Positions 730 to 25,745 of a DNA stretch of 25,745 nt are shown in pieces (positions within the stretch are counted from its first letter, which is position 1; each line of letters begins with the position of its first letter). A program made the position numbers and the translations under genes. Location: NCBI GenBank assembly GCA_016098155.1, contig JAAAJB010000372.1, forward strand, positions 9,091 to 34,835, in the 5' to 3' direction. The stretch comes from Actinomortierella ambigua (taxonomy: Eukaryota > Mortierellomycota > Mortierellomycetes > Mortierellales > Mortierellaceae). The notes beneath the pieces are model-generated. The model was given only the letters and a program-made list of their open reading frames with translations. It did no database searches and was not told the DNA's origin.

Positions 730-1733
730 TTACTTGTTGCGCAGCTCTTCGGGGGTGTCGGGCTGGGCATGGGGGTGGGCAGCCTTGAAGGCGGGATGTT
801 CGAGCAAGGCGGCGTTGACGCGGCTGATGATGGGGTAAGGTGTCATGTCCACGTTGAAACTGCAAGTCAAAGAGAAGAAGAAGAAGAAGAAGAAGGGTCA
901 GACTTTTGCTCATCTTTCTTTTCCCGTGTGCACAGCAGGCAAAGAGTAGATCAGAAGCAACAGCACTGATGCACAATATGGCATCACAAAAAAAGAAGAC
1001 CATACCGAGCCGCGTTGTAGACCTGAGGCACCAGGGCCAGATCGGCAAGGGTGATCGAGTCGCCGTAGCAGTACTTGCCGGCAGTCTTGGCGAGAAGGGT
1101 CTCGATACCCTTGAACCCGTGGCTGGTCATCTTTTGGACCCACTCGGCCTTCTTCTTGTCGTCCTCGAGTGTCTGCAGGATCCGCATGTTGGTCACAGGC
1201 TGGATATCCATGGCCACCGCATAGGCGATTTCGCGAACCTTGGCGCGTCCCTTGGGGTCACTGGGAAGGAGAGGGACATCTATTTGTCGCGAAAAAAAAG
1301 AAGAGAGAAGAATTGGGATTGAAACAGAAAATGAGTAGATGGTCGAAGCGTGAGAGAAATATTGCAGTTTCTCCCCCCTTTGCAAACTTGCTTACCAGGA
1401 CGTGTCTCGTCGAGATACTCGATAATGGCCATTGACTGGGAAATGACCTCTCCATCGATGGCGAGAGCAGGGACCATGCCCAGGGGCTGAATGGCCTGGT
1501 ACTCGGGTGTTTTCTGTGAGGAAAGAGAGCGGAGAGTCAGTCTGCCGCGTGATTTAAAAAAAGTGCGGATTTGACGGATGGGAAACAATCATTGAACTCA
1601 CATGTTCGCCCTTGATAAGGCTGACAATGTGTTGCTTGTACGGGATATTCTTGATGTTGAGGGCAATACGCGTGCGGTAGGAGCACGAGGAGCGGAAGTA
1701 GCCGTACAGGGTGACTTCGTTGTTCTGCGACAT
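730..1733 (-). CDS. Maleylacetoacetate isomerase / zeta-class glutathione S-transferase
   Basis: Four exons (1733-1602, 1513-1396, 1279-1006, 859-730) join in phase to 217 residues, the usual length of the family (about 216). The enzyme isomerises maleylacetoacetate to fumarylacetoacetate with glutathione in phenylalanine/tyrosine breakdown, in the cytosol or mitochondria. Seen in the sequence: the zeta-class active-site motif [14 protein letters not shown] at residues 15-28, the thioredoxin-fold P-x-L segment (GMVPAL), [11 protein letters not shown], and the C-terminal helix segment [18 protein letters not shown]. It ends with a TAA at 732-730. The next gene on the same strand (ING family) starts about 120 bases downstream. 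A TATA-like TATTTAAG lies near 1809-1816, and the 5' leader ends in an ACC repeat directly against the ATG. Confidence 0.93.
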
Positions 1734-2456: not shown

Positions 2457-4354
2457 ATGTATCCGGGACACTACTCCTCCACAGGACCACAGTACCAGCA
2501 GCCGCAGTACCCGCCCCCGGGCCAGCCTGCGCACCCCCCTGCCCCCAACGTCTACGCCCCACCTGGGAGTGCACCTCCCCCTGGAACATACCCTCCTCCA
2601 GCTGGCTACCCGGCCTACCCACCCCCGCAGCCAGGCATGCCCACACCCCACGCAGCCCCCAAAGCACACACTCCCTATGGCGCACCTCCTCCTCCCTATC
2701 CCTCGCCCGCTGCACCCTTTGGAGCCCCTCCCGCCCTGCCTCCACGTGCCCCATACGGTGCCCCTCCAACATCCTATGCGCCACCCGCCCATGCACCTCC
2801 TGCTGCCCCTGGCCACTACGGCGCTCCTCCTGGAGCCCCGTCTCCCTATGGAACAGCTCCTCCTCCCATGTACGCGCCTCCTCCAGGAATGGTGAGTGAT
2901 TGTCTTCTTGCTGCCTCCGACACCATTCTCAAATGTTGTCACACCAGCCAGTGTTGTTGTGGCAAATTGTGTACCAGCTGGACAATGGTGCAAAAGGCTC
3001 CTTCTCTCGCCGTGTAAAAAGTAACCTTATCCCCCTCCCCTGCTCCTCCCCTTTTTTTTCATTTGCGCCGCACTCATCTTAGATTGCTGCCTCTCAGGTG
3101 CCGCCGCCTCCTCAGGGCTGGGTGATGCAACAGTCACTGCACGGCTTGCCGCCGCCCAACTTCCAGCTCTCCAACTGCACTGGCCGCAAGCGAGGGCTCT
3201 TCATCGGCATCAACTACTTCCGCCAGCGCAATGAACTTCGTGGCTGTATCAACGATGTCCGCAACATCAAGGCCTTTTTGTTCCGTCAGTATGGCTTCCG
3301 TGAGGAGGACTCGGTCACCTTGACCGACGACCAGCGCGATCCGAGCAGGATCCCAACTAAGGCCAACATTATGGCTGCTATGCAGTGGCTCGTCCGTGAT
3401 GCCCGCCCCAACGATTCGTATGTTTTGTTTGTTTTGTTTGTTGGACGGCTGTGTTGGGAAGACTTGAAAAAGCTTTACGACTCTATTACTGTCATGATCG
3501 TTTACGAGGCTCTTTTTTTATATTCTCTTGGACACTAGGTTCTTCTTCCATTTCAGTGGACACGGTGGACAGACCAAGGATGTTGACGGCGACGAGGACG
3601 ATGGCTTTGATGAGACAATCTATCCAGTGGACCATGAGCGCGCCGGAGTCATCACGGACGACACCCTGCATGCCATTATGGTCCGACCCTTGCCCCCAGG
3701 CTGTCGTCTCACGGCCGTCATGGACTGTTGTCACTCTGGATCGGCGCTGGATCTGCCGTACATCTATGGCACCCAGGGCCAACTGAAGGAGACCAACCTG
3801 TTGGCGGATGCGGGATCCGGACTCATGAATGCCGGCATGGCCTACCTTCGAGGCGATTTGGGCAGTGTTGTCAACTCACTGGGCGGCCTCGGCAAGAAGC
3901 TGTCCAACCCCAACAGCAAGCAAAAGCAGATCCGCGAAAAATCAAGCCCGGCTGATGTGGTCATGTTCAGTGGATGCAAGGACACACAGACATCTGCGGA
4001 TGCGCACGAAAAGGGTTTTGGTATGACGGGTGCCATGACATTCGCCATGATCACAGCGTAAGTGTTGTTGTTGTTATTATTATTATTGTTGTAGTACGTT
4101 GTGCAAGATGTAAGCGAGAGTATCCACTACTCTTAAAAGCGAAGAGATCCCCTGTACTCTAACCAACATACAAACTTTTTTTGGACTTTTTTTTCCTCCT
4201 ATCGCTGTGCTCGTGTAGTTTGACAGCCAATCCTCGTCAGTCATATCTGCAGCTGCTCAATGCAATCCGTGAGATTCTGCGCACAAAATACTCGCAGAAA
4301 CCCCAACTTAGCTCCAGTCACCCTGTCGACCTCAACATTCTCTTTACCATGTAA
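2457..4354 (+). CDS. Metacaspase (type I, proline-rich prodomain; caspase-like cysteine peptidase)
   Basis: Four exons (2457-2891, 3098-3417, 3539-4057, 4219-4354) join in phase to 469 residues. Metacaspases are calcium-dependent cysteine peptidases that cleave after Arg/Lys and act in fungal stress response, protein quality control and cell death. Residues 1-145 are a low-complexity prodomain rich in Pro, Ala, Gly and Tyr with repeated YGAPP/YAPP units. The p20-like domain starts about residue 170 with [12 protein letters not shown]. The catalytic His is in FHFSGHGGQ (His260) and the catalytic Cys in MDCCHSGS (Cys316). An acidic stretch ([12 protein letters not shown]) follows the His, and a p10-like region runs from about residue 375 to the end. 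All key residues are present, so it should be active. The next gene begins 150 bases downstream on the same strand. Confidence 0.95.
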
Positions 4355-6077: not shown

Positions 6078-7807
6078 ATGCCAGTAATCGAATCGCTCTT
6101 TGTGCTGTCACCAACAGGGTATTGAAACCATTCCAGGAACTGCGAGGGCGTTGGACAACCTCCCCCCCCCCCTCAGGAACGCAAGCCCCCTCATCGAAAA
6201 AAAGATGTCAATGTGAACCTCATCGTGTTAGCTTCTCCATCTACCCATCTATCGCACAACCCCAATAGCAAGGTCATCATTGAAAAGCACTGGCATAACC
6301 TCATATCGCGCAAGATTGTCGACTATTTCAATGAACAGGTTGCCAAGATTCTGGCAGCCAGCGAGGATGTGACACGCCAGGATGTTCCACCAATTCTCTC
6401 CTCACCAAGATACCAGCTCCTGAATGTCTACCGCGACAACCTGACGTACCTCTGCCCAGTCAGCAAAGAAGGTAAAAAAAAATCGGTCTGCAGCTACTTT
6501 TTGTGATAGCTTTGGAGTTTTATCTTTGTGCGTTTAACGAACTATATGAACACTAAACCCCCCTACCCTCCTTTTTCGTTTTTTTTTCTACCACACATAT
6601 CTAGTGGACCCAATGATGGTCTTTGAGTTTATCCATCGGATTCCCGACTTGATGCAAGAATACTTTGGCCAGGTCTCGGAGACAGTGATCAAAGAGAACT
6701 TTGTGACAGTGTACCAACTACTGGAGGAGATGATGGACGACGGCTTCCCACTGATGACGGAGCCGAATGCACTCAAGGAGATCGTGCCGCCACCGACGAT
6801 CCTGAACAAGGTGATTAACACCATGAGCGCAGGCACCAACTCACGGACGCGCAAGATGCCGAACGGCATGTCGAACCTGCCCTGGCGCAAGGCCGGGGTC
6901 AAGTACTCGAGCAACGAGATCTTCTTTGACATTGTGGATGAGATTGATGCCATCGTCGACTCGACCGGAAAAGTCGTTTCGTGCGAGGCCCATGGTTCCA
7001 TCCAGGCCAACTCGAGACTCTCGGGCATGCCGGACCTCACCCTCAAGTTTGTCAACCCTCGACTCGTCGACGACTGCTCCTTTCATCAGTCGGTCCGCTT
7101 CCACAAGTGGGAGACTGAGAAGGTGCTCTCGTTTGTTCCTCCAGATGGCCAATTCCAGCTTATGAGCTATCGGTATGAGAACGGGAAAGGGGGTGGATTG
7201 GAGAGGGTACCAAATTGAAACGATTGTCGGATATTTGCAGTGAAGGGGACGTACTAGGTGAAAAAAAAAATCAAGTCGAAAAAAGCGGATGAAGCCCCGC
7301 TCACGATGACTTTATTTCTTTCGTATTTTTAGAGTGAACCTTCCAAGTATGCAGACATTGCCTATTCAAGTGAAGCCGTCGATTCACATTGGACCCAACG
7401 GAGGCAAGCTCGAGATCTCGATCAACTTGCGTCAGACGGACGGGAAGCCCGTGGAAGGATGCGTGCTGACAATACCGATGCACAAGTCGACGATGAACCT
7501 GATGGCGACGCTGAATCAAGGGCAGTACATGTTTGATCCCGTGACCAAGAGTTTGCGCTGGGATGTGGGCAAGATCATGCCTCGGGAACGGGCACCGGTC
7601 CTGTCGGCGACGTTTAGCTATGGCAAGGGTGTGACGCAGGAGCAGGTTGCGAACGCAGGATACACCCTCACGGTCGAGTTCCTGATCAACATGTACTCGC
7701 TCTCGGGACTCAAGGTCGATGCACTCCAGTTGTTCAATGAGGCCTACAAGCCGTACAAGGGCGTGAGGAGCGTGACAAAGGCTGGGCGTTACCATATAAG
7801 ACTATAG
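6078..7807 (+). CDS. AP-3 adaptor complex subunit mu
   Basis: Four exons (6078-6118, 6269-6471, 6605-7172, 7333-7807) join in phase to 428 residues, close to the usual length of about 418. The mu subunit of AP-3 recognises tyrosine-type sorting signals in cargo moving from the Golgi/endosome to the vacuole. Seen here: the N-terminal longin-like part (VIESLFVLSPTG, then IIEKHW, SPRYQLLNVYRDNL); the linker VYQLLEEMMDDGFPL with PPTILNKV, which is AP-3 rather than AP-1/AP-2-like; and the mu homology domain from about residue 180 (LPWRKAGVKYSSNEIFFDI, SGMPDLTLKFVNPRLVDD, VLSFVPPDGQFQLMSY). It ends in KPYKGVRSVTKAG, as in AP-3 mu of other eukaryotes. Nothing looks broken. Confidence 0.95.
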
Positions 7808-13574: not shown

Positions 13575-13775
13575 TCAAGCTCGGGCGCAATCGCCGAGAC
13601 ACATCTGGTACTGCTTCTTAGCGTTGCTAACACAGTAAGGTGGGTAGCCGTTTCTCTGGCACCAAGAAAGAGCGGCTGTCTCCTCTCTCTTGCAGGCGTC
13701 CTGGCAAGGACCGGCGAATGCCGACGACATCAACGAGGCAACAACGACGATGCAGGCTACGGCAAAGGAACGCAT
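13575..13775 (-). CDS. Small secreted six-cysteine protein, copy 1 (66 residues)
   Basis: Intronless. Residues 1-21 form a clear signal peptide (charged MR start, VACIVVVASLM core, AFA cleavage context). The mature part of about 45 residues has six cysteines spaced C-x3-C-x10-C-x8-C-x10-C-x3-C, with a PPYC turn in the middle. The palindromic spacing fits two antiparallel helices tied by disulfides, as in alpha-hairpin peptides, with one additional disulfide near the turn. I do not know a named family with this exact pattern; candidates are effector, antimicrobial or cell-wall signalling peptides. A TTTAAAA element at 13877-13883 may be the TATA. Two paralogs lie upstream on the same strand (15072 and 16426). 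The family resemblance makes all three credible as real genes. Confidence 0.85.
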   Translation of the reverse strand: MRSFAVACIVVVASLMSSAFAGPCQDACKREETAALSWCQRNGYPPYCVSNAKKQYQMCLGDCARA

Positions 13776-15071
13776 GGTATTGATTACTATGGAGTGAAAA
13801 TTGGAGGATGGGAGAGGGAGTTTGAAAGGAACAACGGTGTTAAAAGTGCAAAAGAAGGGGGAGAAGAGGATTGGGGTTTTAAAGGGTGTGGCTAGCAGGT
13901 TTTCATCACCATTTTTGGATCCAAAGTCGAGATCCCTCTTTGCAAGTTGGAGGTACGAGCTCCTTGTCTCACCGTTCAACGGCGAGCCTCGATCCCACCA
14001 ATCCACTCAAAGGTGATTTTTGTGTTTGCTCAAGAGTTGACTTTGAGACGCGTTTCCCTGTTGGAAAGACGGTGGGAGAGTTGGAGGAGCCATCCTTGGT
14101 CTGATATTTTATTTTTTCACGCCGCCCTCTCAAGAAAGGATGGCCTTGTGTTACCCCCTCCCCAATGTTCAAAGCACCATATTCGACCACAAGAAGGAAA
14201 GATTGATATATGTAGAATCGCACGCCGCGTCCACTTTGCGCCTCCATGCGAATGTTGTAAGACAATGGCAATGGCATGTGCCATATCCGAGCGTCAAATG
14301 AGGGGGACTTGCGAAACGGCGTCATTTTCATAATTGTGCATGGAAATTTGCGACTGCATGCAGCACACCAACAACATGTCAATAGTGAAATACAAACCAT
14401 CTCTCTTGGATTGTCCTTAAACCATGACAGATAAACGAAGAGGGGGATGGATAGCAGTTTATACCTGCGGTGCACACTTGTGTGCCAACAAACTCTTGTA
14501 AGGAAAATAGCCGCTGAAGCTGCCAAAGCAATAACTCTTGTTCGTAAGGGAAAAAAAACAAGGTTACAGGTGACCGAATTATTCTTCGCGGTGACAAACT
14601 CGAGCTGCACATGCGCTCGCAAACATTAATTCTCTTGCGGCTTGAAGCTTAAAGTTCAAGTAAAGTTCCTGGAGGGTTTACATCGTCACGGGAACGCTTT
14701 TCACTCTAGTAGAGCCTCGCCCTTGCCACTATGGCTGTGAATGCTGTATGCGATGCGATTGGTTCATACTATGTGCGCGCTCGAGACTATCCGAGAAAAA
14801 AGTGGGGGAATTTGGACACAGAGCATTCTACCTGAATCTAGAAAGATACGTTCACCCGAGCATTCAATGGATGTGATGTAGCGAGTGGTGAATGACAATT
14901 GTTCAGTGGGATAAACAAGTCTGGTACATAGGCATCGTTTGAAAAAAATAGTCTGTATTTATTCTGTAGCACTCTGGCTTAGAAAAACAGCATGAGTGGG
15001 AAAAGAAGTGGTTGGATCGCACCATCCGATGTCATGGCTGGATTCCTGCTCTTTGGGCTTGTTCGCTTGTT
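13776..15071. other. Spacer of about 1.3 kb between secreted-protein copies 1 and 2
   Basis: It contains the copy 1 promoter at its left end. A minus-strand frame open across 13969-14622 lacks an ATG at its 5' end and shows no family similarity, so I leave it out. I found no third cysteine-framework remnant, RNA gene or mobile element by eye. Confidence 0.4.
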
Positions 15072-15284
15072 TTAACAGTCGCGAATGCACAGGTTGTAGT
15101 TGTTCTTGGCAGCCTGGTAGCAGGATGGGGGACGCGAGTACTTCCTGCACGAGTCGATAGCTCGCTCCCTTGCAGCCGTGCAATCGGAGCGGCAGCTACG
15201 CTTTTCCAGCTCTTCGGGAGCGGCCATAACCGAGGACATCATCGAGGCAACGACAACAAAGGCGACGAGAGTGAAAGAGCGCAT
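15072..15284 (-). CDS. Small secreted six-cysteine protein, copy 2 (70 residues), with Kex2-type site
   Basis: Intronless. The signal peptide (residues 1-21, ending VMA) is very similar to copy 1 (MRSF start, VVVAS-MS core). It is followed by a short pro-segment APEELEKR whose Lys-Arg pair is a typical Kex2/KexB processing site. The mature peptide then starts at Ser30. The six cysteines have exactly the same C-x3-C-x10-C-x8-C-x10-C-x3-C spacing, and the last cysteine is the C-terminal residue. The residues between the cysteines differ strongly from copy 1, except for a PP pair before cysteine 4 and a Y/N-rich helix before cysteine 5. A TATAAAA lies 78 bases upstream of the ATG. Expected location: outside the cell. 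Target unknown. Confidence 0.88.
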   Translation of the reverse strand: MRSFTLVAFVVVASMMSSVMAAPEELEKRSCRSDCTAARERAIDSCRKYSRPPSCYQAAKNNYNLCIRDC

Positions 15285-16425
15285 GGTGTAAGGAATGTGT
15301 GTTGAGAAATGGAGATTGCTTGTTAGGAATGAGGAGGGAAAGAGGGGAGGATTTGTGGAGCTTTTATATTCGAAAAGTGAAGAGAGCGCTCGACTTTTTT
15401 TTTTTTTTTGATCGCCACTGACCCTTACCTGGATGATGGAAATCTCGGAAGTACCGGATGATAGAACTTGTGGAAAGTCAAGTTGGAGGAGGACGCAGTT
15501 GCTGACCAGTCATGGACTGCAGTACCTGTCACTGGCACAGGTGTCTAATAGAGTCGAAAGTACAAATCGTGCGGGATCGATGCAACTACGGCATCCTCGG
15601 CTAACATCAGATGTCGTGACCAATTAAAGTGTGAGGAAGCTCGATGACAGCTGAATGACCACTAAGAAACAGCAGATCTCTCTTTCTCTATCCCGAATAA
15701 GGGAGCCAAGAGCCTGAGTTTAATTGTTTACTTTTGCTCAGGCTGCATTCCTAGATTCTCACGGCGAACTTTGTGTCACACAATGGCGTTTGACTGTGCG
15801 GCTTCAACGGTGGAGGAGGCTCTCGAATATTTTCCACACAACAGAAGCGGGATGGAGAAAGGCTGTACAGTGAAGACTTTTGGACTGCATAATGTAACAT
15901 GGCATATGTGACAACGGAAGGAAGATGACCCTACATATGTGAATGGTAAAAGAAGTGGCGATCTATCCCAAGACTAGACTGTACACGTACTATGTGATCA
16001 AGTCTATCCTCGTACGTGGCAAGATCCACGGGCGCTTTTGCTGCTCTAGAGAGAAAAAGGTGGCATAAATACAGAAGCCCGAGGTAACTCGTGTCCGTAC
16101 AAGAAGCTTGTTGATTATGTTTACATATTCCTATACATGCGGCATGTAGGATCCGATCGGTCTAAAAGTCTTTGCCTTTGAGTCCAAAAGCTACAAGTGA
16201 GTACAGTGGCTATGTATAGGATAGGAGACAGGTAAGAGAATTCGCTTTATCGTCTTTACAGCCAAGTTATCCTGAACATTCCTGTCATACCAGTAGGTCC
16301 AATATAGACAGAGTTTTATGGGTTTCTTTAATTTTCGAAGCAAGTGCAAAGAGAGAAGGCAGCGCACGCACGCTGGAGAATAAACTATGAGATTGTTCAG
16401 CGATGTACATGTACAGTACAGCCGC
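15285..16425. other. Spacer of about 1.1 kb between secreted-protein copies 2 and 3
   Basis: The left end holds the copy 2 promoter and a T-run near 15395-15410. I see no coding sequence with family similarity and no structural RNA gene in the rest. Confidence 0.4.
15362..15368 (-). promoter_or_regulatory. TATA box of secreted-protein copy 2
   Basis: TATAAAA on the minus strand, 78 bases upstream of the ATG at 15284. It is the cleanest core-promoter match in this part of the window and suggests a regulated, strongly transcribed gene. Confidence 0.55.
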
Positions 16426-16653
16426 CTATCGGTAGCAGTTTCGGAAGCAGATTTCGTGACGATACTTGGCGGTATTGCTGCAATCGGGACTGGGGTCGTG
16501 ATCGCGACACCACGTAAGTGCCTCCTGTAGTTTGACGTCGCATCGTTCCGCACAGCGGTCTGCATCGTCCATGGCGGGAGTGACGGGGAGAGCAACCGTG
16601 ACTGACACGATAAAGGCGAGGGCAACGAGGCAAGAAATGGTAGGGGCGCGCAT
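16426..16653 (-). CDS. Small secreted six-cysteine protein, copy 3 (75 residues)
   Basis: Intronless. Signal peptide of about 21 residues (MRAPTISCLVALAFIVSVTV-A), then an acidic 11-residue segment (LPVTPAMDDAD) and a mature part with the same C-x3-C-x10-C-x8-C-x10-C-x3-C framework. W/WC before cysteine 3 and a YR/YRH helix before cysteine 5 are shared in kind with the other copies; overall identity outside the cysteines is low. The ATG at 16653 is chosen over an in-frame ATG at 16713 because it places the hydrophobic core directly after the start, as in the paralogs. A TATAAAT element at 16715-16721 stands 62 bases upstream. Unlike copy 2 there is no Lys-Arg site. It is transcribed away from the kelch gene. 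Confidence 0.85.
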   Translation of the reverse strand: MRAPTISCLVALAFIVSVTVALPVTPAMDDADRCAERCDVKLQEALTWCRDHDPSPDCSNTAKYRHEICFRNCYR

Positions 16654-17771
16654 ATGGTTGGACTGGGTAAGATGGGGTGTCTGAAATTTTGGGTAGAGAA
16701 GCAGCTCTTGCATGATTTATACGAAAAGAGAAAATCGGCGTGTGAACACAAGGTGCTGCACATCAGGTCTTTCTCGATTGCCGATCGAGGATTGTTTGTT
16801 GTTGTTGTTATTGTGCATCATATATCGAGATGGTCGACTTGTCTGCCAACACGAAGGTGACCTATGGTTGAGTGAGTGGGGGCGCTCCTTATTTAGCCAC
16901 AATGGCAATGGTGGTGGTGGTAGAAGGTGGGGATCTCTGTGACCTGTGGAGGGGGGGATCTGGCTGGATGGCTAGCCATGTGTGTACACAGACTTGAACA
17001 TACAAAATCCTTCGCCATATGAGACATGTATGGAATGGGAGGTTGTAAGATATATTGAGGTGGTTCCTCTTTGTGCTTCTTCAGTTGTGTGCAACAATAC
17101 ACACATGTACCTCGCAGGTGCGTAGTAGGTGCGAGTGTCTATTAGTAGTTGAGAGGTATCCAGGTGTCTCACACAATCTTTCTTTAGCACTGCTTCTCTT
17201 TGACCATTGACCTCTCTCGTGATGTTGCATGTAGGGGGTGGGTGGGTGTGGTTCTGCTGCCTTGTCTGTCTGCCTGTCATATCTGTCTGTCTGTTTATCC
17301 GTCTACCTACCTGCCTGTCTGCCTGTCTACCTGCTTGTTTGTCTTCCTGCCTGTCTGCTTGCCTGCCTGCCTCTCTGCAGGGTCTTGACGCAACGGATCA
17401 AATGAACCACCGCCCCCCCCCTCCTTCTTCCGCGTGTCCTCAGGGATGATTGATTTCAAGAGAGAACGCCTTAAAGCTAAAAAAACCTTTTTTTGTGGTG
17501 CGTCCGAATTTGTCACTGTCTCGGCCCCACTCCCCCCCTCGTCTGCTTCATCGTATCGTCAGAGTTCTACTTTGCCACGTCTATACACACACACACAAAA
17601 AAGAGGTCTCTTCGCCGCCCTTTTTCCTTTTCTCTACTTCTCCATCTCTGCATTATTTCCATCGGTCCATCTGGACAACTCCTCTTGCATTCCCCAATGC
17701 GCCACTGCTAGTGCGTGCACTCCAATTCTCTATACCCTTTTCCCTCCTCCCCCTTTCATTCACACCAACCC
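16654..17771. other. Divergent spacer with a tetranucleotide-rich tract
   Basis: This interval of about 1.1 kb lies between secreted-protein copy 3 (minus) and the kelch gene (plus) and holds both promoters. It includes a CTGC/CTGT-type repeat tract at 17261-17380, C-runs near 17410, CA repeats near 17586 and a pyrimidine-rich leader in front of the kelch ATG. Open frames here follow the repeats and I do not call them. Confidence 0.5.
17261..17380. repeat. Degenerate (CTGY) tetranucleotide repeat tract
   Basis: About 120 bases made mostly of CTGT, CTGC, CTAC and CTTC units on the plus strand. It is a decayed microsatellite with no coding meaning. Confidence 0.8.
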
Positions 17772-19988
17772 ATGTGGCCTTTTCGGAGTCAGGCTGGGCT
17801 GCGCCTGCTATCGACTCTTGCTTTCCTCTCCAGCATAGTCCCATGGTGTGACGCCCAGCCTTCCTCAGGGCCACGGCGGACAAGCCGGGCCATCTCTATT
17901 CTTGGCGACCACCTCTATCTCCACGGAGGTAACACACCGCAAGAGAGCATATGGCTGGCATTGCACTTCTCCAGGACTAGACTAACCCCGTTCACTACTT
18001 CATTCCACTCCTTCCTTCCTTCCTAGGCTCGACCGTTGAAAAAGCCAACCAAGAACCCGACTGCAGCCCCGATCTCTTCAGGCTGTTTCTAGGCCGGACC
18101 AATACCTGGAACATCACAGATAGCTCTATAGGTGGATGGGAGCTAGTCGACCCCCCTTACGATCCAAAAAACCTGCTTGGGCGACCGCCGGCCGCTGGTC
18201 TCGGCCTGACCGCTCTGCCCTGGCAGGGATTCAACCCCAATGAGACAACGTCGCCACAAACGACCAAGGCAGCGCCCAAAACTTTCGACGATGATGACGA
18301 CGTTTTGGCCGAGGGCCATTTCCCGTTCCTCGTCGAATTTGGTCGCCTTGGGTGTGTCGACGTGGACGGCGGTGATAGTGGTAAACCAGGAAACAACGGG
18401 CTGGCCATTGGATTCAACGTTTACGACCGACAAAAAAACATTTGGAAAACTGTCGACTTTGAAGTGAGCGATCCAGCGACCAACACCTCATTGAGCCACA
18501 CAGAATGGATAACGGGCAATTGGCAGGCACCTGTCGTTTTGCTAGACTCCGTCAACATGACATGGCATATCATTCTCCAGAGCTCGACCCCATTGCGTCA
18601 AGTCATCATCACCCGCAGCATTGCCGACGCAGGAGAGGATGACCAGGAAAGAGAAGAAGAAGCTTTCTCATGGTGGGACGGTCCAGGGCGCAAGACAATA
18701 TTACGGCAGACCGTCGAGTTTCTCTCGCGAGGATGGACACTGACGAGCAATCTCAACCATACAGCCCCTTTTGTTGGACGTGGAACAGCAACATATGTGA
18801 ATGGCATGATTGTCGTCATTTCGGGCCAGGGCAACGCATTCACGCCGGGCGACTCGGATCCGCTGTCAGGAGGACTTCGTGCATGCGACCACGCATTTGT
18901 GTTCTCGTTGGATACCAAGCAGTGGCGTCGCGTCGAACTTTCTGTCCAGGGCGGAGGGGCACAGCCAGCTACTCGCGAGAACGCCGCCTTTATTACAGGT
19001 ACGGTTGCACATCATTCTTTCTTTCTATCGCTCAGTTCTATTCTGTGTGTTTCTTTTTTTTTAACCCGACATACGTGTATTCTCTCTTTTTTTTCTTTCT
19101 TTCTTTCTTGGCTTTGACTCTCTAGTCGGAAAAACGATTGTGATGTATGGAGGCATCATGCCATTCGAGACGGTCTTGAAAGATCTTTGGACATTGGATA
19201 CTGAAACTTGGACATGGACCCGTGGGCCGGATGCGCCATCACCGCGCGCAGGACATTCTTTGATTCCCTACCACGAGTACCTTCTCGCCGTCTCTGGCTT
19301 TGATGTGGGACCCAATCTGCCCCTGACAGGCGCGTTGCCCATCCTCGCCTACAACACTCACCTCTCGAGCTGGACCGACACCTTACGAGCCACTGTACAC
19401 CCGAGTGAGCTCGTGTCCGGTGTGACCAAGATCATGATCTTTATTCTGAGCGCCGTCATTGCGTGTACAGTGTGTGGCATCGTCTTTTCAGTGTCGTGGC
19501 TGAGGCGGTGGAATCTGCGCAATTATATGAAGGTGGACGGTGAGGCCTACGGTATGGATGGTTTCAGCCACCACCGGTCGGGGCAATTCCAGCAGGACCG
19601 TGAACAGGATCTTCGTGTGCGCAAGAAGCTTGCGCAGCTGGAGGAGATGACGGGGCTGAGTGCGATTGACGAGGAGACGGAGGGAGAGACAGAGGACGAT
19701 GATGATTATGGAGATGACGAGATTGAATATGAGGACGCAAGAGGCAGATGGCGGCGAGGCAGCAGCAGCAGCAGTATCAGCAACAACGGCGGTGTAGGAC
19801 AGCGCCTGTTGCACAATAATACCCAGCGAAACCCGATATCTGTGACCCGCAGCGATCGTAGCGTCTCGTTCGCGGAGGTGGTGGAGGTGCGAGAGCCAGA
19901 AACGTTTGATAGCGATGGCTCAGACGGCGAAGAGCATCATTCCACACCAAGGGAGGAGCAGGTCTTGTTCATGAGACACGAAGAGTAA
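17772..19988 (+). CDS. Type I membrane protein with kelch-repeat beta-propeller ectodomain
   Basis: Three exons (17772-17928, 18027-18998, 19126-19988) join in phase to 663 residues. The signal peptide is about residues 1-28 (LLSTLAFLSSIV core, ending in DA). The ectodomain shows kelch-type blades: ISILGDHLYLHGG, FVGRGTATYVNGMIVVISGQ, ATRENAAFITGTV/VGKTIVMYGGIMP, LWTLDTETWTW and PSPRAGHSLIPYHEYLLAVSG. One membrane segment lies at about residues 478-501 (IFILSAVIACTVCGIVF). The cytoplasmic tail of about 160 residues is strongly acidic (ETEGETEDDDDYGDDEIEYE) and later has RSVSFAEVVEV. Membrane-anchored kelch proteins of this layout are numerous in Mortierellomycota; their role is unknown, possibly surface sensing or carbohydrate binding. 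It may instead be related to fungal galactose-oxidase-like propellers, but the oxidase active-site residues are not evident. Confidence 0.85.
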
Positions 19989-20307
19989 AGTCATGTAAAA
20001 AAAAAACCGAAAAAGAGCGATGTGACTGGTCATGCTATGTAAGCTCGTGCAATGCTTGTGCCATGTACAATTCTTCTTGCCCAATGCATTGCTAAACTCC
20101 CCTTTCCTCCAACATTACATCTGTCTCTGTCGTCCATTCCCTAAAACTGGGCACTCACATCCCTCCTCCTCCCTACCTTTTGTTTCATACCCGATTTCTG
20201 CTTCAGCGCCACCCTGTACACCACCCGGGCAACCCTCCGTTCCTCTTCTGTCAGCATTCCTTTCTCTCGCACGACCCTTTCCTCCCTACCTCTTCAAAGG
20301 CTGCCTA
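19989..20307 (+). other. Intergenic: kelch 3' region and GUCD1-like promoter
   Basis: About 320 pyrimidine-rich bases between two plus-strand genes. The frame of the following gene stays open upstream to 20032, but that sequence is CT-rich leader and not conserved-looking. I see nothing else here. Confidence 0.45.
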
Positions 20308-22155
20308 ATGCAGGCTGTATCCAGAGTCCCTCATATTACACAAGAGAGTGACTGGGATTGCGGCCTGGCCTGTGTGGCCATGGTCTCGCGAGCCCTTGAT
20401 GCGCGATATAGTATCGGAGAACTTCGAACCATCTGTGGAGGTATGACGAAGAGAGAGAGAGAGAAAGAAAGAAAGAGAGAGAAAGCGAGAACGAAGAAAA
20501 AAAAAAGGTTCATTGATTCGGCTTCCTATCCTTGCTCTTTCTCTGCCACACTCATTCACACCGAAAGAGAGGATGTTGATGTATCTCCCCCGTTGGCGAT
20601 AGTTGAATCTGTGTGGACGATCGACCTAGTCTACCTATTGCGAAAGCTGTCCGACGATGCTCTAGAGTTGATGCCAAACCTACCTTCGCCGTCACAGCTC
20701 CTCAGCGTGCCTATGCTTTCACCGCGACGAGAAGAGGGCTGGGACTTTACCTATTATACAACCATGATTGGAGCAAACGCGGCTTATTCCAAGGAGAGGT
20801 TCTATCGCAAGGTATTCCTTCTGTCCCATAGCAGAGCTTTTCTCTTACCCTCATGGCATATCGATATCTACAATGGATGGACTGTTTGAGGGTGTGAACT
20901 AACACTGTGCTCTCTTATTTTTTTTTTCACCCTCCCTGTCTCTCATAGTCATTTGATGCGGATCAGGCGCGCGTGAACGGACTCTTTGAGAACGCAACTT
21001 CGTCCAACATTCGCATTATTGAGATGTAAGTGGGCCGAGGTCATGCGTCCAATTTTTTTTCCCCAAACCAGGGCTGTGTGCATGGTCGCAGTAGCAAGCC
21101 AGCGAGTAGTGACACGTAATCTACCAAGGGAGATAGGGGAGGGAGAGAGAAGAGGGGAAGAGGATGAAAGAGAAGGGAGAGAGGGGGGGTAGAGTTGCAG
21201 ACTTGGAGACTGGAATGGACTACTTTCTCCTCAACAGCCGCCGTTGTTCATCAGTAAACAATAGCCAGTGACATCGATGGGTCTATTAATACGCAGAGCG
21301 GGTTTTTTTCCCTCTTGTCGCTCTTGTCATTTTTTTTTTTAGGATGCTCCCTTTGGACGACTTTCGGCGGTTCCTCAGCTGCGGACAATACGCGATGGTC
21401 GTACTTGTCAACATGCGACTATTGCGGTGCTCGAATTGCGTGGTAGGGATTGCAACTCAATCACTGATGGTTTGCCTTGATGAACGCTTTGCTTGTTGCA
21501 GTGCTAACAGCGGAGAGAGAGGCGTTCTTTTTTCATTATGTATATTCGGTAGGAGCAAACCGCTATGTGCAACTGCAATACAGGTCCCTTAGGAGCGGTT
21601 GTCCAGCAGATGAGAGGATATCGCTATGTGGGTAAGTAACTGACACTGTGGATCGTTACCTCCGTGGGCTATGGAGAGAGAAAAGATCGGCTCTACTCAC
21701 AAGCAAACGTACTTTTTTTTTTTTTTTGGCCGACTTTAGGTCACTTTATTGTTTTGGTCCAGTATGACCCATCGACAGACGAGTTTTACTACAGAGGTAT
21801 TTCAGATACAATTTGTGAAGATTCAGAAGCCTCATTCAGTAATGCCTGCCTTTGCAATTCGTCTGACACAGTTATTTTTACGAAAACAAAAAAATATAGA
21901 CCCAGGAGTGAACGACGACCTATGTGTGATCTCAGCAAAAGATCTGGAAAAAGCGCGCCGATCGTCAGGCACAGACCATGACTGGTACGGGTTTTTCTTT
22001 TCCTTCTTTAGAAATGAGTATCGAGCCATTTGGCAGGTGCAATCCCTTTTACACTCACATGGCCCATGGTATCCGGCCCACTCACACATCCATGGACTCT
22101 TTATCTTTCTTTCTTTCCATGTTCTCAATATAGCATTGTGGTCAGAGTCGTATAA
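20308..22155 (+). CDS. GUCD1-like protein (Guanylate_cyc_2 / plant-type 'guanylyl cyclase' family, papain-like fold)
   Basis: Exon-like blocks 20308-20440, 20603-20811, 20949-21025, 21343-21548, 21584-21631, 21740-21796, 21900-21984 and 22134-22155 join in phase to about 278 residues. Family marks in order: VPHITQESDWDCGLACVAMV near the start, SVWTIDLVYLL, YSKERFYRK, ARVNGLFENA, GQYAMVVLVNMRLLRCSNC, GHFIVLVQYD, FYYRDPGVNDDLC and ARRSSGTDHD before a short hydrophobic end. The W-D-C-G start and G-H-F-I-V-L motif resemble the Cys and His of C39-type peptidases; catalytic activity is unproven. The least certain part is 21440-21583: joining the frames needs either a 35-base intron (21549-21583) or a different weak splice site. 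Family membership is secure; this junction is not. Confidence 0.85.
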
Positions 22156-25260: not shown

Positions 25261-25627
25261 TCAGAAAGGTCCAAGGGTGGCGGCAGCTCCACCCTTTCGT
25301 CGTCTCCGCCGGTGCCATCCCACGCGTGTCAAGAGGTTTCGGCTCTTCAAGCTCCCATAGTATTTTTTGGCCCGCTCCCATATTCGTGCTTGTAGTCAAA
25401 TGAACGTTGACCTTGCGGAAATGGTATACAGAACAGCACCAGAAATTGTTCACTCTTGCCGTTGTGTATGAAGATAGCCGCTATGGTGAAAAAAGAGCAG
25501 AGGGCGGAGGAGGGGGAGGGACGAGAGGGACGAGGAAGAGGAGAGTGGGGGATGAGGCATATGGACCGTGCTCCCACAATCGCGTGAAAGTGAGAATCCA
25601 CTTGGCAGCCACCAGCAAGACGTAGCG
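25261..25627 (-). CDS. 3' part of an unrecognised small basic protein gene
   Basis: Two exon-like blocks join in phase: 25627-25567 (after an ACAATAG acceptor; reads RYVLLVAAKWILTFTRLWEH) and 25388-25261 (ERAKKYYGSLKSRNLLTRV, then a five-arginine cluster and TLGPF stop). The result is a hydrophobic segment followed by a basic tail, as in some small mitochondrial or ER membrane proteins. The 5' end is probably within or beyond the last 120 bases of the window and was not found. The family is not recognised, and splice sites are only moderate matches. Confidence 0.33.
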
Positions 25628-25745
25628 CTATTGTTCTGCTTTTGTCACATTGTGTTTTCTTAGAAGTTATTTCAGCTTTTTTCCATTACCCCCACTCCTC
25701 CACTCCTCCACCCTCTCCCCTCATTCGAATTCCATTCCATTCCAC

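What the first reader, a model, noticed from the sequence alone, without database searches (positions are those of the whole stretch)
13575..16653. Tandem family of three secreted six-cysteine peptides with an identical palindromic cysteine framework
Three intronless genes, all on the minus strand and spaced about 1.4-1.5 kb apart, encode 66-75 residue secreted peptides. All three keep C-x3-C-x10-C-x8-C-x10-C-x3-C with no spacing change, although most other residues differ. Exact spacing despite sequence divergence implies selection on a disulfide-tied helical hairpin. I know no named family with this pattern. The array may be an undescribed fungal effector, antimicrobial or signalling peptide family that grew by tandem duplication.
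Basis: partly seen in the sequence, partly recalled or inferred. Interest (0 to 1): 0.88.

Follow-up and report, generated by a model that had tools for sequence, protein, structure and literature searches.

The report
Fungal secreted disulfide-laddered hairpin peptide family
A soil mould carries an apparently unnamed family of small, probably secreted proteins, predicted to be two helices bolted together by a ladder of three disulfide bonds, whose surfaces vary greatly between copies as in many defence and toxin peptides; what they act on is unknown.

Summary
Three minus-strand ORFs keep C-x3-C-x10-C-x8-C-x10-C-x3-C exactly; 600 dinucleotide shuffles gave none. The genome matches Actinomortierella ambigua. 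The array is part of a larger family: at least 27 open genes, 32 hairpin domains, on eight contigs. Arm spacings are nearly fixed; the loop varies from 5 to 15 residues. One contig holds five repeats of a three-gene module: single-, double- and four-cysteine types. There cysteines are lost in matched pairs (C3+C4 in one type, C2+C5 in one gene), as a nested ladder C1-C6, C2-C5, C3-C4 predicts. AlphaFold2 gives a confident helical hairpin for window gene 2 (pLDDT 86), but a poor model for the long-loop type (pLDDT 49). No Pfam or NCBIfam cut-off was reached; named database homologues are all Actinomortierella. In the window group signal peptides are conserved while mature arms are only about twice random identity. 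Best reading: a lineage-restricted, fast-diversifying family of secreted defence, competition or effector peptides that works like, but is not, an alpha-hairpinin. Disulfides, secretion, expression and activity are untested.

The parts
13575..13775 (-). gene 1: 66-aa peptide, signal-like stretch about residues 1-21, Cys framework 3-10-8-10-3
   Evidence: ORF and alignment; best matches on other contigs are C699 and C399
15072..15284 (-). gene 2: 70-aa peptide, signal-like stretch about residues 1-22, dibasic KR at residues 28-29, framework 3-10-8-10-3
   Evidence: 80% identical homologue P0002 in Actinomortierella wolfii; AlphaFold2 hairpin of the mature part
16426..16653 (-). gene 3: 75-aa peptide, most divergent of the three, framework 3-10-8-10-3
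   Evidence: matches the other two window genes and C536
13578..13706 (-). gene 1 Cys core C1-C6 plus three-residue tail (residues 24-66)
   Evidence: read from the translation
15075..15194 (-). gene 2 Cys core C1-C6 (residues 31-70)
   Evidence: read from the translation; in the 48-residue model C9, C13, C24 lie in helix 1, C33 and C44 in helix 2, C48 just after it
16429..16554 (-). gene 3 Cys core C1-C6 plus two-residue tail (residues 34-75)
   Evidence: read from the translation
15363..15368 (-). TATAAA, 84 bases upstream of gene 2 ATG, followed by a pyrimidine-rich leader
   Evidence: TATAAA upstream in 7 of 12 genes of the window and C635 groups, 102 of 5000 control stretches
16716..16721 (-). 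TATAAA, 68 bases upstream of gene 3 ATG
13877..13883 (-). TATA-like TTTAAAA stretch, 108 bases upstream of gene 1 ATG (gene 1 has no TATAAA)
   Evidence: looser pattern (10 of 12 genes, 489 of 5000 controls)

Best explanation
The three genes belong to a lineage-restricted fungal family of secreted miniproteins. Each mature peptide is a helical hairpin whose two helices are cross-tied by three nested disulfides (C1-C6, C2-C5, C3-C4), so the fold needs almost no conserved core and the outward helix faces are free to change. Copies arise by gene duplication, decay and rapid change of the mature part behind a better conserved signal peptide, which is how defence, competition and host-directed peptides usually evolve (recalled). 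Most likely they are released to act on other organisms (microbes, small animals or a host) by binding a membrane, cell-wall, enzyme or ribosomal target with the variable helix faces, as alpha-hairpinins do. Shown by computation: open genes, framework, family size, expansion, pattern of conservation. Predicted: fold. Inferred: disulfide pairing, secretion, and the role. My split: anatomy about 0.85, this role about 0.4.
For: Framework exact in all three, 0 of 600 shuffles. Hairpin model pLDDT 86.2, pTM 0.63 from 9 sequences. Palindromic spacing: in the modelled peptide C9+C48, C13+C44 and C24+C33 all sum to 57. Paired losses: 5 of 5 type-C genes of C197 lack C3 and C4 at unchanged total length (36, once 37, residues between the CX3C pairs) and their profile aligns with type A end to end (hhalign E 4e-11, signal included); 1 of 5 type-A genes lacks C2 and C5 together. 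Proline 4 of 520 residues in the arms against 38 of 296 in the loops of 26 domains. Window group of 8 genes: signal identity 0.50 (0.23 when shuffled), mature arms 0.14 (0.07 when shuffled, 0 of 2000 reach 0.14); the four DNA matches of genes 1 and 2 to family genes on other contigs cover the signal-coding part and up to 20 bases upstream, none the Cys core. All named homologues are Actinomortierella. TATAAA upstream in 7 of 12 genes of the window and C635 groups against 102 of 5000. A copy without a start codon at C536:2898 fits birth and death.
Against: No disulfide, transcript, protein or activity data. The second AlphaFold2 job, on the C197 type A with only 3 sequences, gave a poor beta-rich model (pLDDT 49), so the fold of the long-loop branch rests on spacing alone. 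Coordinates could not be read, so Cys-Cys distances in the good model were not measured. Net charge of the mature parts of the 8 window-group peptides ranges from -2 to +4, not uniformly cationic. Hydrophobic periodicity is not significant (484 and 273 of 2000 shuffles reach it). Synonymous sites are near saturation, so positive selection could not be tested. The signal-over-mature contrast is weak in C197 types A and B (0.51 against 0.43, 0.50 against 0.44) and absent in type C (0.36 against 0.36). Homology of the window branch to the C197 branch is modest beyond the cysteines (2 of 60 Cys-preserving permutations reach the real score). TATAAA is found in only 1 of 15 C197 genes and was chosen after a first look at the sequences.
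Confidence: 0.5

Rival explanations
1. The peptides are self- or mate-recognition or developmental signals acting on the fungus itself; diversification reflects recognition specificity, and the three-gene modules at C197 encode matching parts.
For: Five modules keep the same transcription order of three distinct types (type C, then B, then A) on either strand; conserved signal with variable mature part in the window group; a dibasic site one residue before the Cys core in gene 2, P0003 and the C536 copy.
Against: No receptor or processing partner is tied to them; dibasic sites are missing before the core in window genes 1 and 3 and in the A. wolfii homologue of gene 2, which reads ER there; allele classes across isolates could not be tested.
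Confidence: 0.2
2. [quoted passage not shown]
Against: Those matches are no better than unrelated helical pairs; no sequence match of the double-domain profile in the PDB up to E 10; arm residues of the window group are hardly conserved, unlike a shared metal site.
Confidence: 0.15
3. Structural or surface-coating peptides of hyphae or spores, with loose constraint on sequence.
For: Small, signal-bearing, many copies, arms variable.
Against: In the window group the mature part changes much more than the signal, more typical of interaction proteins; no consistent hydrophobic face was found.
Confidence: 0.15
4. Mitochondrial intermembrane-space proteins of the twin CX9C (CHCH) or twin CX3C (small Tim) kind.
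For: Paired Cys on two helices with nested disulfides is the same fold logic (passages of PMC12114033 and PMC3759932).
Against: Spacing is x10 where the part of the substrate table that I saw lists x9 for nearly all CHCH proteins; N-termini look like ER signals; no Pfam CHCH or Tim match in 9 members; many fast-changing copies.
Confidence: 0.03
5. Chance open frames, not genes.
For: Genes 1 and 3 are not among the proteins that the profile searches returned.
Against: 0 of 600 shuffles; a homologue of gene 2 in a second species at 80% identity; many paralogues with the same arms; TATA elements.
Confidence: 0.02

Closest known systems
alpha-hairpinins of plants (4C motif CX3C-X4-20-CX3C, 6C motif CX3CX3C-X4-20-CX3CX3C)
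   Same: Small helix-loop-helix peptides tied by disulfides, CX3C pair in each helix, cysteines kept while the rest varies.
   Different: The third Cys of each arm is 11 residues from the CX3C pair instead of 4; 30 residues lie between the CX3C pairs in the window peptides and 36-37 in type C, outside X4-20; fungal; no sequence link. Definitions from passages and section 6 of PMC11591084.
twin CX9C (CHCH) and twin CX3C (small Tim) proteins
   Same: Cysteines at fixed helical spacing on two antiparallel helices, nested disulfides.
   Different: Mitochondrial, with x9 or x3 alone in each helix; here both x3 and x10 in each arm, behind signal-like N-termini.
Vanabins of ascidians
   Different: No sequence match; only weak fold matches.
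Cbp1 of Histoplasma and relatives
   Same: Small secreted all-helical fungal protein with six cysteines and three intramolecular disulfides, restricted to one lineage and under positive selection (passages of PMC9255746).
   Different: Dimeric binocular fold with a four-helix bundle, genes with introns, not a simple hairpin; not among the profile matches.

Membership tests
alpha-hairpinin | 4C core CX3C-X4-20-CX3C | tested here: not met
   30 residues, with two further Cys among them, lie between the two CX3C pairs in all 3 window peptides; 36 or 37 in the 5 type-C genes
alpha-hairpinin | 6C core CX3CX3C-X4-20-CX3CX3C | tested here: not met
   the third Cys follows x10, not x3, in all 3 window peptides
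alpha-hairpinin | helix-loop-helix fold | tested here: met
   predicted helices 2-27 and 32-47 in gene 2, pLDDT 86; prediction only, one member; the other job failed to give a usable model
alpha-hairpinin | nested disulfides | tested here: inconclusive
   paired Cys losses fit; no chemical data, model coordinates not readable
CHCH / twin CX9C | C-x9-C in each of two helices | tested here: not met
   x10 in both arms of all 3 window peptides
CHCH / twin CX9C | no ER signal peptide, import into mitochondria (recalled) | tested here: inconclusive
   N-termini look like signal peptides by inspection; no localisation predictor was available
CHCH / twin CX9C | match to a curated CHCH profile | tested here: not met
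   Pfam scan of 3 window peptides and 6 relatives lists no such family at E up to 10; HMMER filters drop most matches above about 0.1
small Tim (twin CX3C) | CX3C pairs 11-16 residues apart (range recalled; 14-16 seen) | tested here: not met
   30 residues between the pairs; Tim spacings of 14-16 in the table passage of PMC12114033
vanabin | sequence or fold relationship to Vanabin2 | tested here: inconclusive
Cbp1 | sequence relationship to solved Cbp1 structures | tested here: inconclusive
   profile search of PDB sequences lists no Cbp1 up to E 10; absence of a match only

The most novel reading that the evidence does not exclude
The family is a new modular secreted system. A three-rung disulfide ladder lets hairpins change their surface almost freely, and at C197 three pre-diverged hairpin types (four-cysteine, double and single) are duplicated as a fixed set, so the three products work together, for example as parts of a combined toxin or as a recognition set. 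The natural copies that lost one matched rung each would make it a test bed for how many disulfides a hairpin needs.
Probability: 0.2. Interest if true: 0.78.

Novelty: new variant of a known kind. Interest (0 to 1): 0.62.

Why it matters
My impression, not a search result, is that secreted Cys-rich peptides of early-diverging fungi are little catalogued. Three paper searches on Mortierella or Actinomortierella with effector or small-secreted terms listed no description of this family by title or abstract start (1 of 1 paper listed, 8 of 8, 12 of 162). A hairpin whose core is replaced by a palindromic disulfide ladder, with natural variants that lack one rung, is a compact scaffold of use to peptide engineering and a clear case of signal-conserved, mature-variable evolution in a fungus. 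It also gives Mortierellaceae a defined, testable candidate class for microbial competition or host contact.

Tried and rejected
Known-family search: Pfam best values 0.3 on a signal stretch of gene 1 and 0.19, both far below the cut-offs; NCBIfam only sub-threshold rows, the best for gene 1 a pectinesterase inhibitor row at E 0.0058, 16 bits against a cut-off of 35.95; PDB sequences E 0.36 and worse, or nothing. None accepted.

Second structure job (P0008, 3 sequences): pLDDT 49, uninformative. Hydrophobic-moment test: not significant. dN/dS: synonymous sites near saturation, given up. Window array: no DNA self-match to prove tandem duplication directly. RNA genes: none. A weak row at C547 (E 0.09, from a shifted query) was not followed. 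Mortierella wolfii and toxin: 11 papers listed, none about these peptides by title or abstract start. Framework in print: 11 papers hold one of four motif spellings; the three whose passages I opened use it for small odorant-binding-like proteins of sand flies (two) and butterfly defensins; the other eight were seen as listing only.
Full report
CHECK OF THE OBSERVATION. The window holds three open minus-strand ORFs at 13575-13775, 15072-15284 and 16426-16653. Each begins with a basic residue, a hydrophobic stretch and small residues ahead of a likely signal-peptidase site (by inspection; no predictor was available), and each carries C-x3-C-x10-C-x8-C-x10-C-x3-C. The pattern occurs three times in the six frames of the window and never in 600 dinucleotide-preserving shuffles, whether the loop is fixed at 8 or allowed 5-15.

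WHERE IT IS FROM. The window is bases 9091-34835 of a 34,835-base contig (C304) in a 33.8-Mb, 846-contig assembly. Proteins on three other contigs of that assembly are returned as Actinomortierella ambigua DFQ27 entries on contigs of the same lengths (17,816, 25,025 and 45,005 bases).

THE FAMILY. Searches of the own genome with single members and scans of the DNA handed out give 27 open genes with 32 hairpin domains on eight contigs: the window group (C304 three genes, C536, C699, C399, C112, C478; 8 genes), a C635 group with two extra Cys (4 genes), and C197 with 15 genes. The genome tool scores only its best candidates, so these are lower bounds. The listing took any signal-like ORF with four or more Cys and required no spacing; in its 26 family domains that keep six or more Cys, the first arm is x10 in 26 of 26 and the second arm x10 in 25 of 26 (x11 once). 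The first spacer is x3 or x2; the last is x3 except x5 in C399, and in the C635 group extra Cys fall in and after it. Loops are 5, 7, 8, 9, 11, 14 or 15. A further copy at C536:2898 lacks a start codon and is left out of the counts. Five of the eight loci lie within 1.5 kb of a contig end, against an expected 7.5% per locus (binomial P 1.1e-4); I read this as assembly breaks at repeats, so arrays may be longer than seen.

THE C197 ARRAY. Between 27,820 and 43,627 of C197 lie five copies of a three-gene module, always transcribed in the order type C, type B, type A, three modules on the minus and two on the plus strand. Type A is a single domain, 3-10-15-10-3. Type B is two domains in one chain, each 3-10-14-10-3 apart from one x11. 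Type C has four of the Cys, as CX3C-X36-CX3C (X37 once; one copy has a fifth Cys elsewhere). Since 10+1+14+1+10 is 36, type C is the same hairpin without its inner pair. The profile comparison aligns types C and A over their whole length at E 4e-11, and A with the first half of B at E 3.3e-11; both alignments include the signal peptides, which add to the scores. One type-A gene (30561-30797) lacks C2 and C5 together, spacing 14-15-14. So both losses seen remove two partners of a nested ladder. If two lost Cys were picked at random, a nested pair would come up 3 times in 15; two independent events give 0.04 (my arithmetic). This is modest support and treats the five type-C genes as one event.

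FOLD. AlphaFold2 on the mature part of gene 2 with nine sequences gives a helical hairpin, helices 2-27 and 32-47, pLDDT 86.2, pTM 0.63. C9, C13 and C24 lie in helix 1, C33 and C44 in helix 2, and C48 just after it. The palindromic spacing would make C9-C48, C13-C44 and C24-C33 face each other about the turn. On an ideal helix (100 degrees per residue) offsets 0, 4 and 15 fall within a 60-degree arc, so x3 plus x10 puts three Cys on one face. Proline is 4 of 520 in the arms and 38 of 296 in the loops of 26 domains. Against this: a second job on the C197 type with three sequences gave a poor beta-rich model (pLDDT 49), and hydrophobic periodicity was not significant.

EVOLUTION. Among the eight genes of the window group, signal peptides are 0.50 identical on average (0.23 when residues are shuffled), the 20 non-Cys arm residues only 0.14 (0.07 shuffled; 0 of 2000 reach the real value, so some relatedness remains). 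Non-synonymous differences per site are 0.29 in signals and 0.56 in mature parts. Four DNA matches of window genes 1 and 2 to family genes on other contigs cover the signal-coding part and up to 20 bases upstream of the ATG; none covers the Cys core, and gene 3 has none at E 1e-5. The contrast of signal and mature identity is weaker in C197 types A and B (0.51 against 0.43 and 0.50 against 0.44), absent in type C (0.36 and 0.36) and intermediate in the C635 group (0.53 and 0.37). Synonymous sites are near saturation, so no dN/dS claim is made. Between strains, one presumed orthologue pair differs at 8 of 76 residues (C399 and P0003), two others at 1 of 73 and 1 of 80. TATAAA lies upstream in 7 of 12 genes of the window and C635 groups (not gene 1), 1 of 15 at C197 and 102 of 5000 control stretches; I chose that word after a first scan with a looser set had given 8 of 27 against 203 of 3000. 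Leaders are on average 69% and 73% pyrimidine.

RELATIVES. Three profile searches of about 5.8 billion proteins (14, 329 and 67 candidates scored) returned 2, 7 and 3 proteins. All that bear a name are Actinomortierella: A. wolfii (P0002, 80% identical to gene 2) and A. ambigua entries; P0001, without a name, is gene 2 itself. These searches need shared 5-residue words, so distant relatives in other genera are not excluded. The link between the window branch and the C197 branch is modest: profile comparison E 6.4e-5 and 6.7e-6, but 2 of 60 permutations that keep the Cys reach the first score. One superfamily is likely; convergence is not ruled out.

WHAT IT WORKS LIKE AND WHAT IT IS. The design, two helices tied by nested disulfides with free surfaces, is that of plant alpha-hairpinins, for which antifungal, trypsin-inhibiting and ribosome-inactivating activities are reported (passages and section 6 of PMC11591084). 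By that paper's motifs these peptides are not alpha-hairpinins. They are not twin CX9C or small Tim proteins by spacing (passages of PMC12114033 and PMC3759932). Vanabins share the idea of disulfides in place of a core (passages of PMC13348028). Cbp1 shows that a small six-Cys helical secreted protein can be a fungal effector (passages of PMC9255746) but has another fold.

MECHANISM. Shown: open genes, framework, copy number, modular array, conservation pattern. Predicted: hairpin. Inferred: signal cleavage and secretion; for gene 2, a possible further cut after the KR ahead of the core (Kex2-type processing, recalled; its A. wolfii homologue has ER there); oxidation to a three-rung ladder; action on other organisms through variable helix faces. 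I put the anatomy at about 0.85 and the defence, competition or effector role at about 0.4, with self-signalling, metal binding and surface roles as rivals.

NOVELTY. No Pfam or NCBIfam cut-off was reached and no PDB sequence matched credibly. The paper searches listed no description of the family by title or abstract start: 20 of 54 papers listed; 1 of 1; 8 of 8; 20 of 289; 11 of 11; 15 of 18; 11 of 11; 12 of 162. Of these papers I opened passages of five (PMC11591084, PMC9255746, PMC6123390, PMC4943706, PMC8427292); most subscription journals are not held. I call it a new variant of a known kind: a new cysteine framework and family within secreted disulfide-tied helical hairpins.

Noticed in passing
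own genome C197:27820-43627 (loci L049, L050, L055, L060): Five copies of a three-gene module of signal-bearing Cys peptides, transcribed C-B-A each time, two on the opposite strand to the other three; contains double-hairpin 12-Cys proteins.
   Followed up: yes
own genome C536:2898-3095 (L024): Family copy without a start codon at the expected place, 55% identical to the C699 gene; looks like a decaying copy.
   Followed up: partly
window 25599-25739 and C478:64-195 (L051): 141-base stretch 74% identical between the right end of the window's contig and the left end of C478, which carries another family member about 0.5 kb further in; probably a dispersed repeat that broke the assembly.
   Followed up: no
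own genome C635:1390-11476 (L041, L042): Four-gene subgroup with eight Cys (tail of type C-x1-C-x1-C-x3/4-C), suggesting a fourth disulfide.
   Followed up: partly
own genome C635 from about 15413 (L042 from 5413): Open frame with many repeated C-x2-C zinc-knuckle-like units.
   Followed up: no
window 984-1733 (-), 3125-4061 (+), 6613-7807 (+), 19143-19988 (+), 20032-20889 (+): Neighbouring gene pieces: glutathione S-transferase, caspase-domain protease, adaptor complex medium subunit, kelch-repeat protein, Guanylate_cyc_2 domain protein; nothing links them to the peptides.
   Followed up: partly
window 15198-15203 (-), with P0002, P0003 and the C536 copy: Dibasic residues one residue before the first Cys in some members (KR in gene 2 and P0003, RR in C536); ER in the A. 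wolfii homologue of gene 2 and KL in the DFQ27 copy at C399, whose other-strain counterpart P0003 has KR.
   Followed up: no
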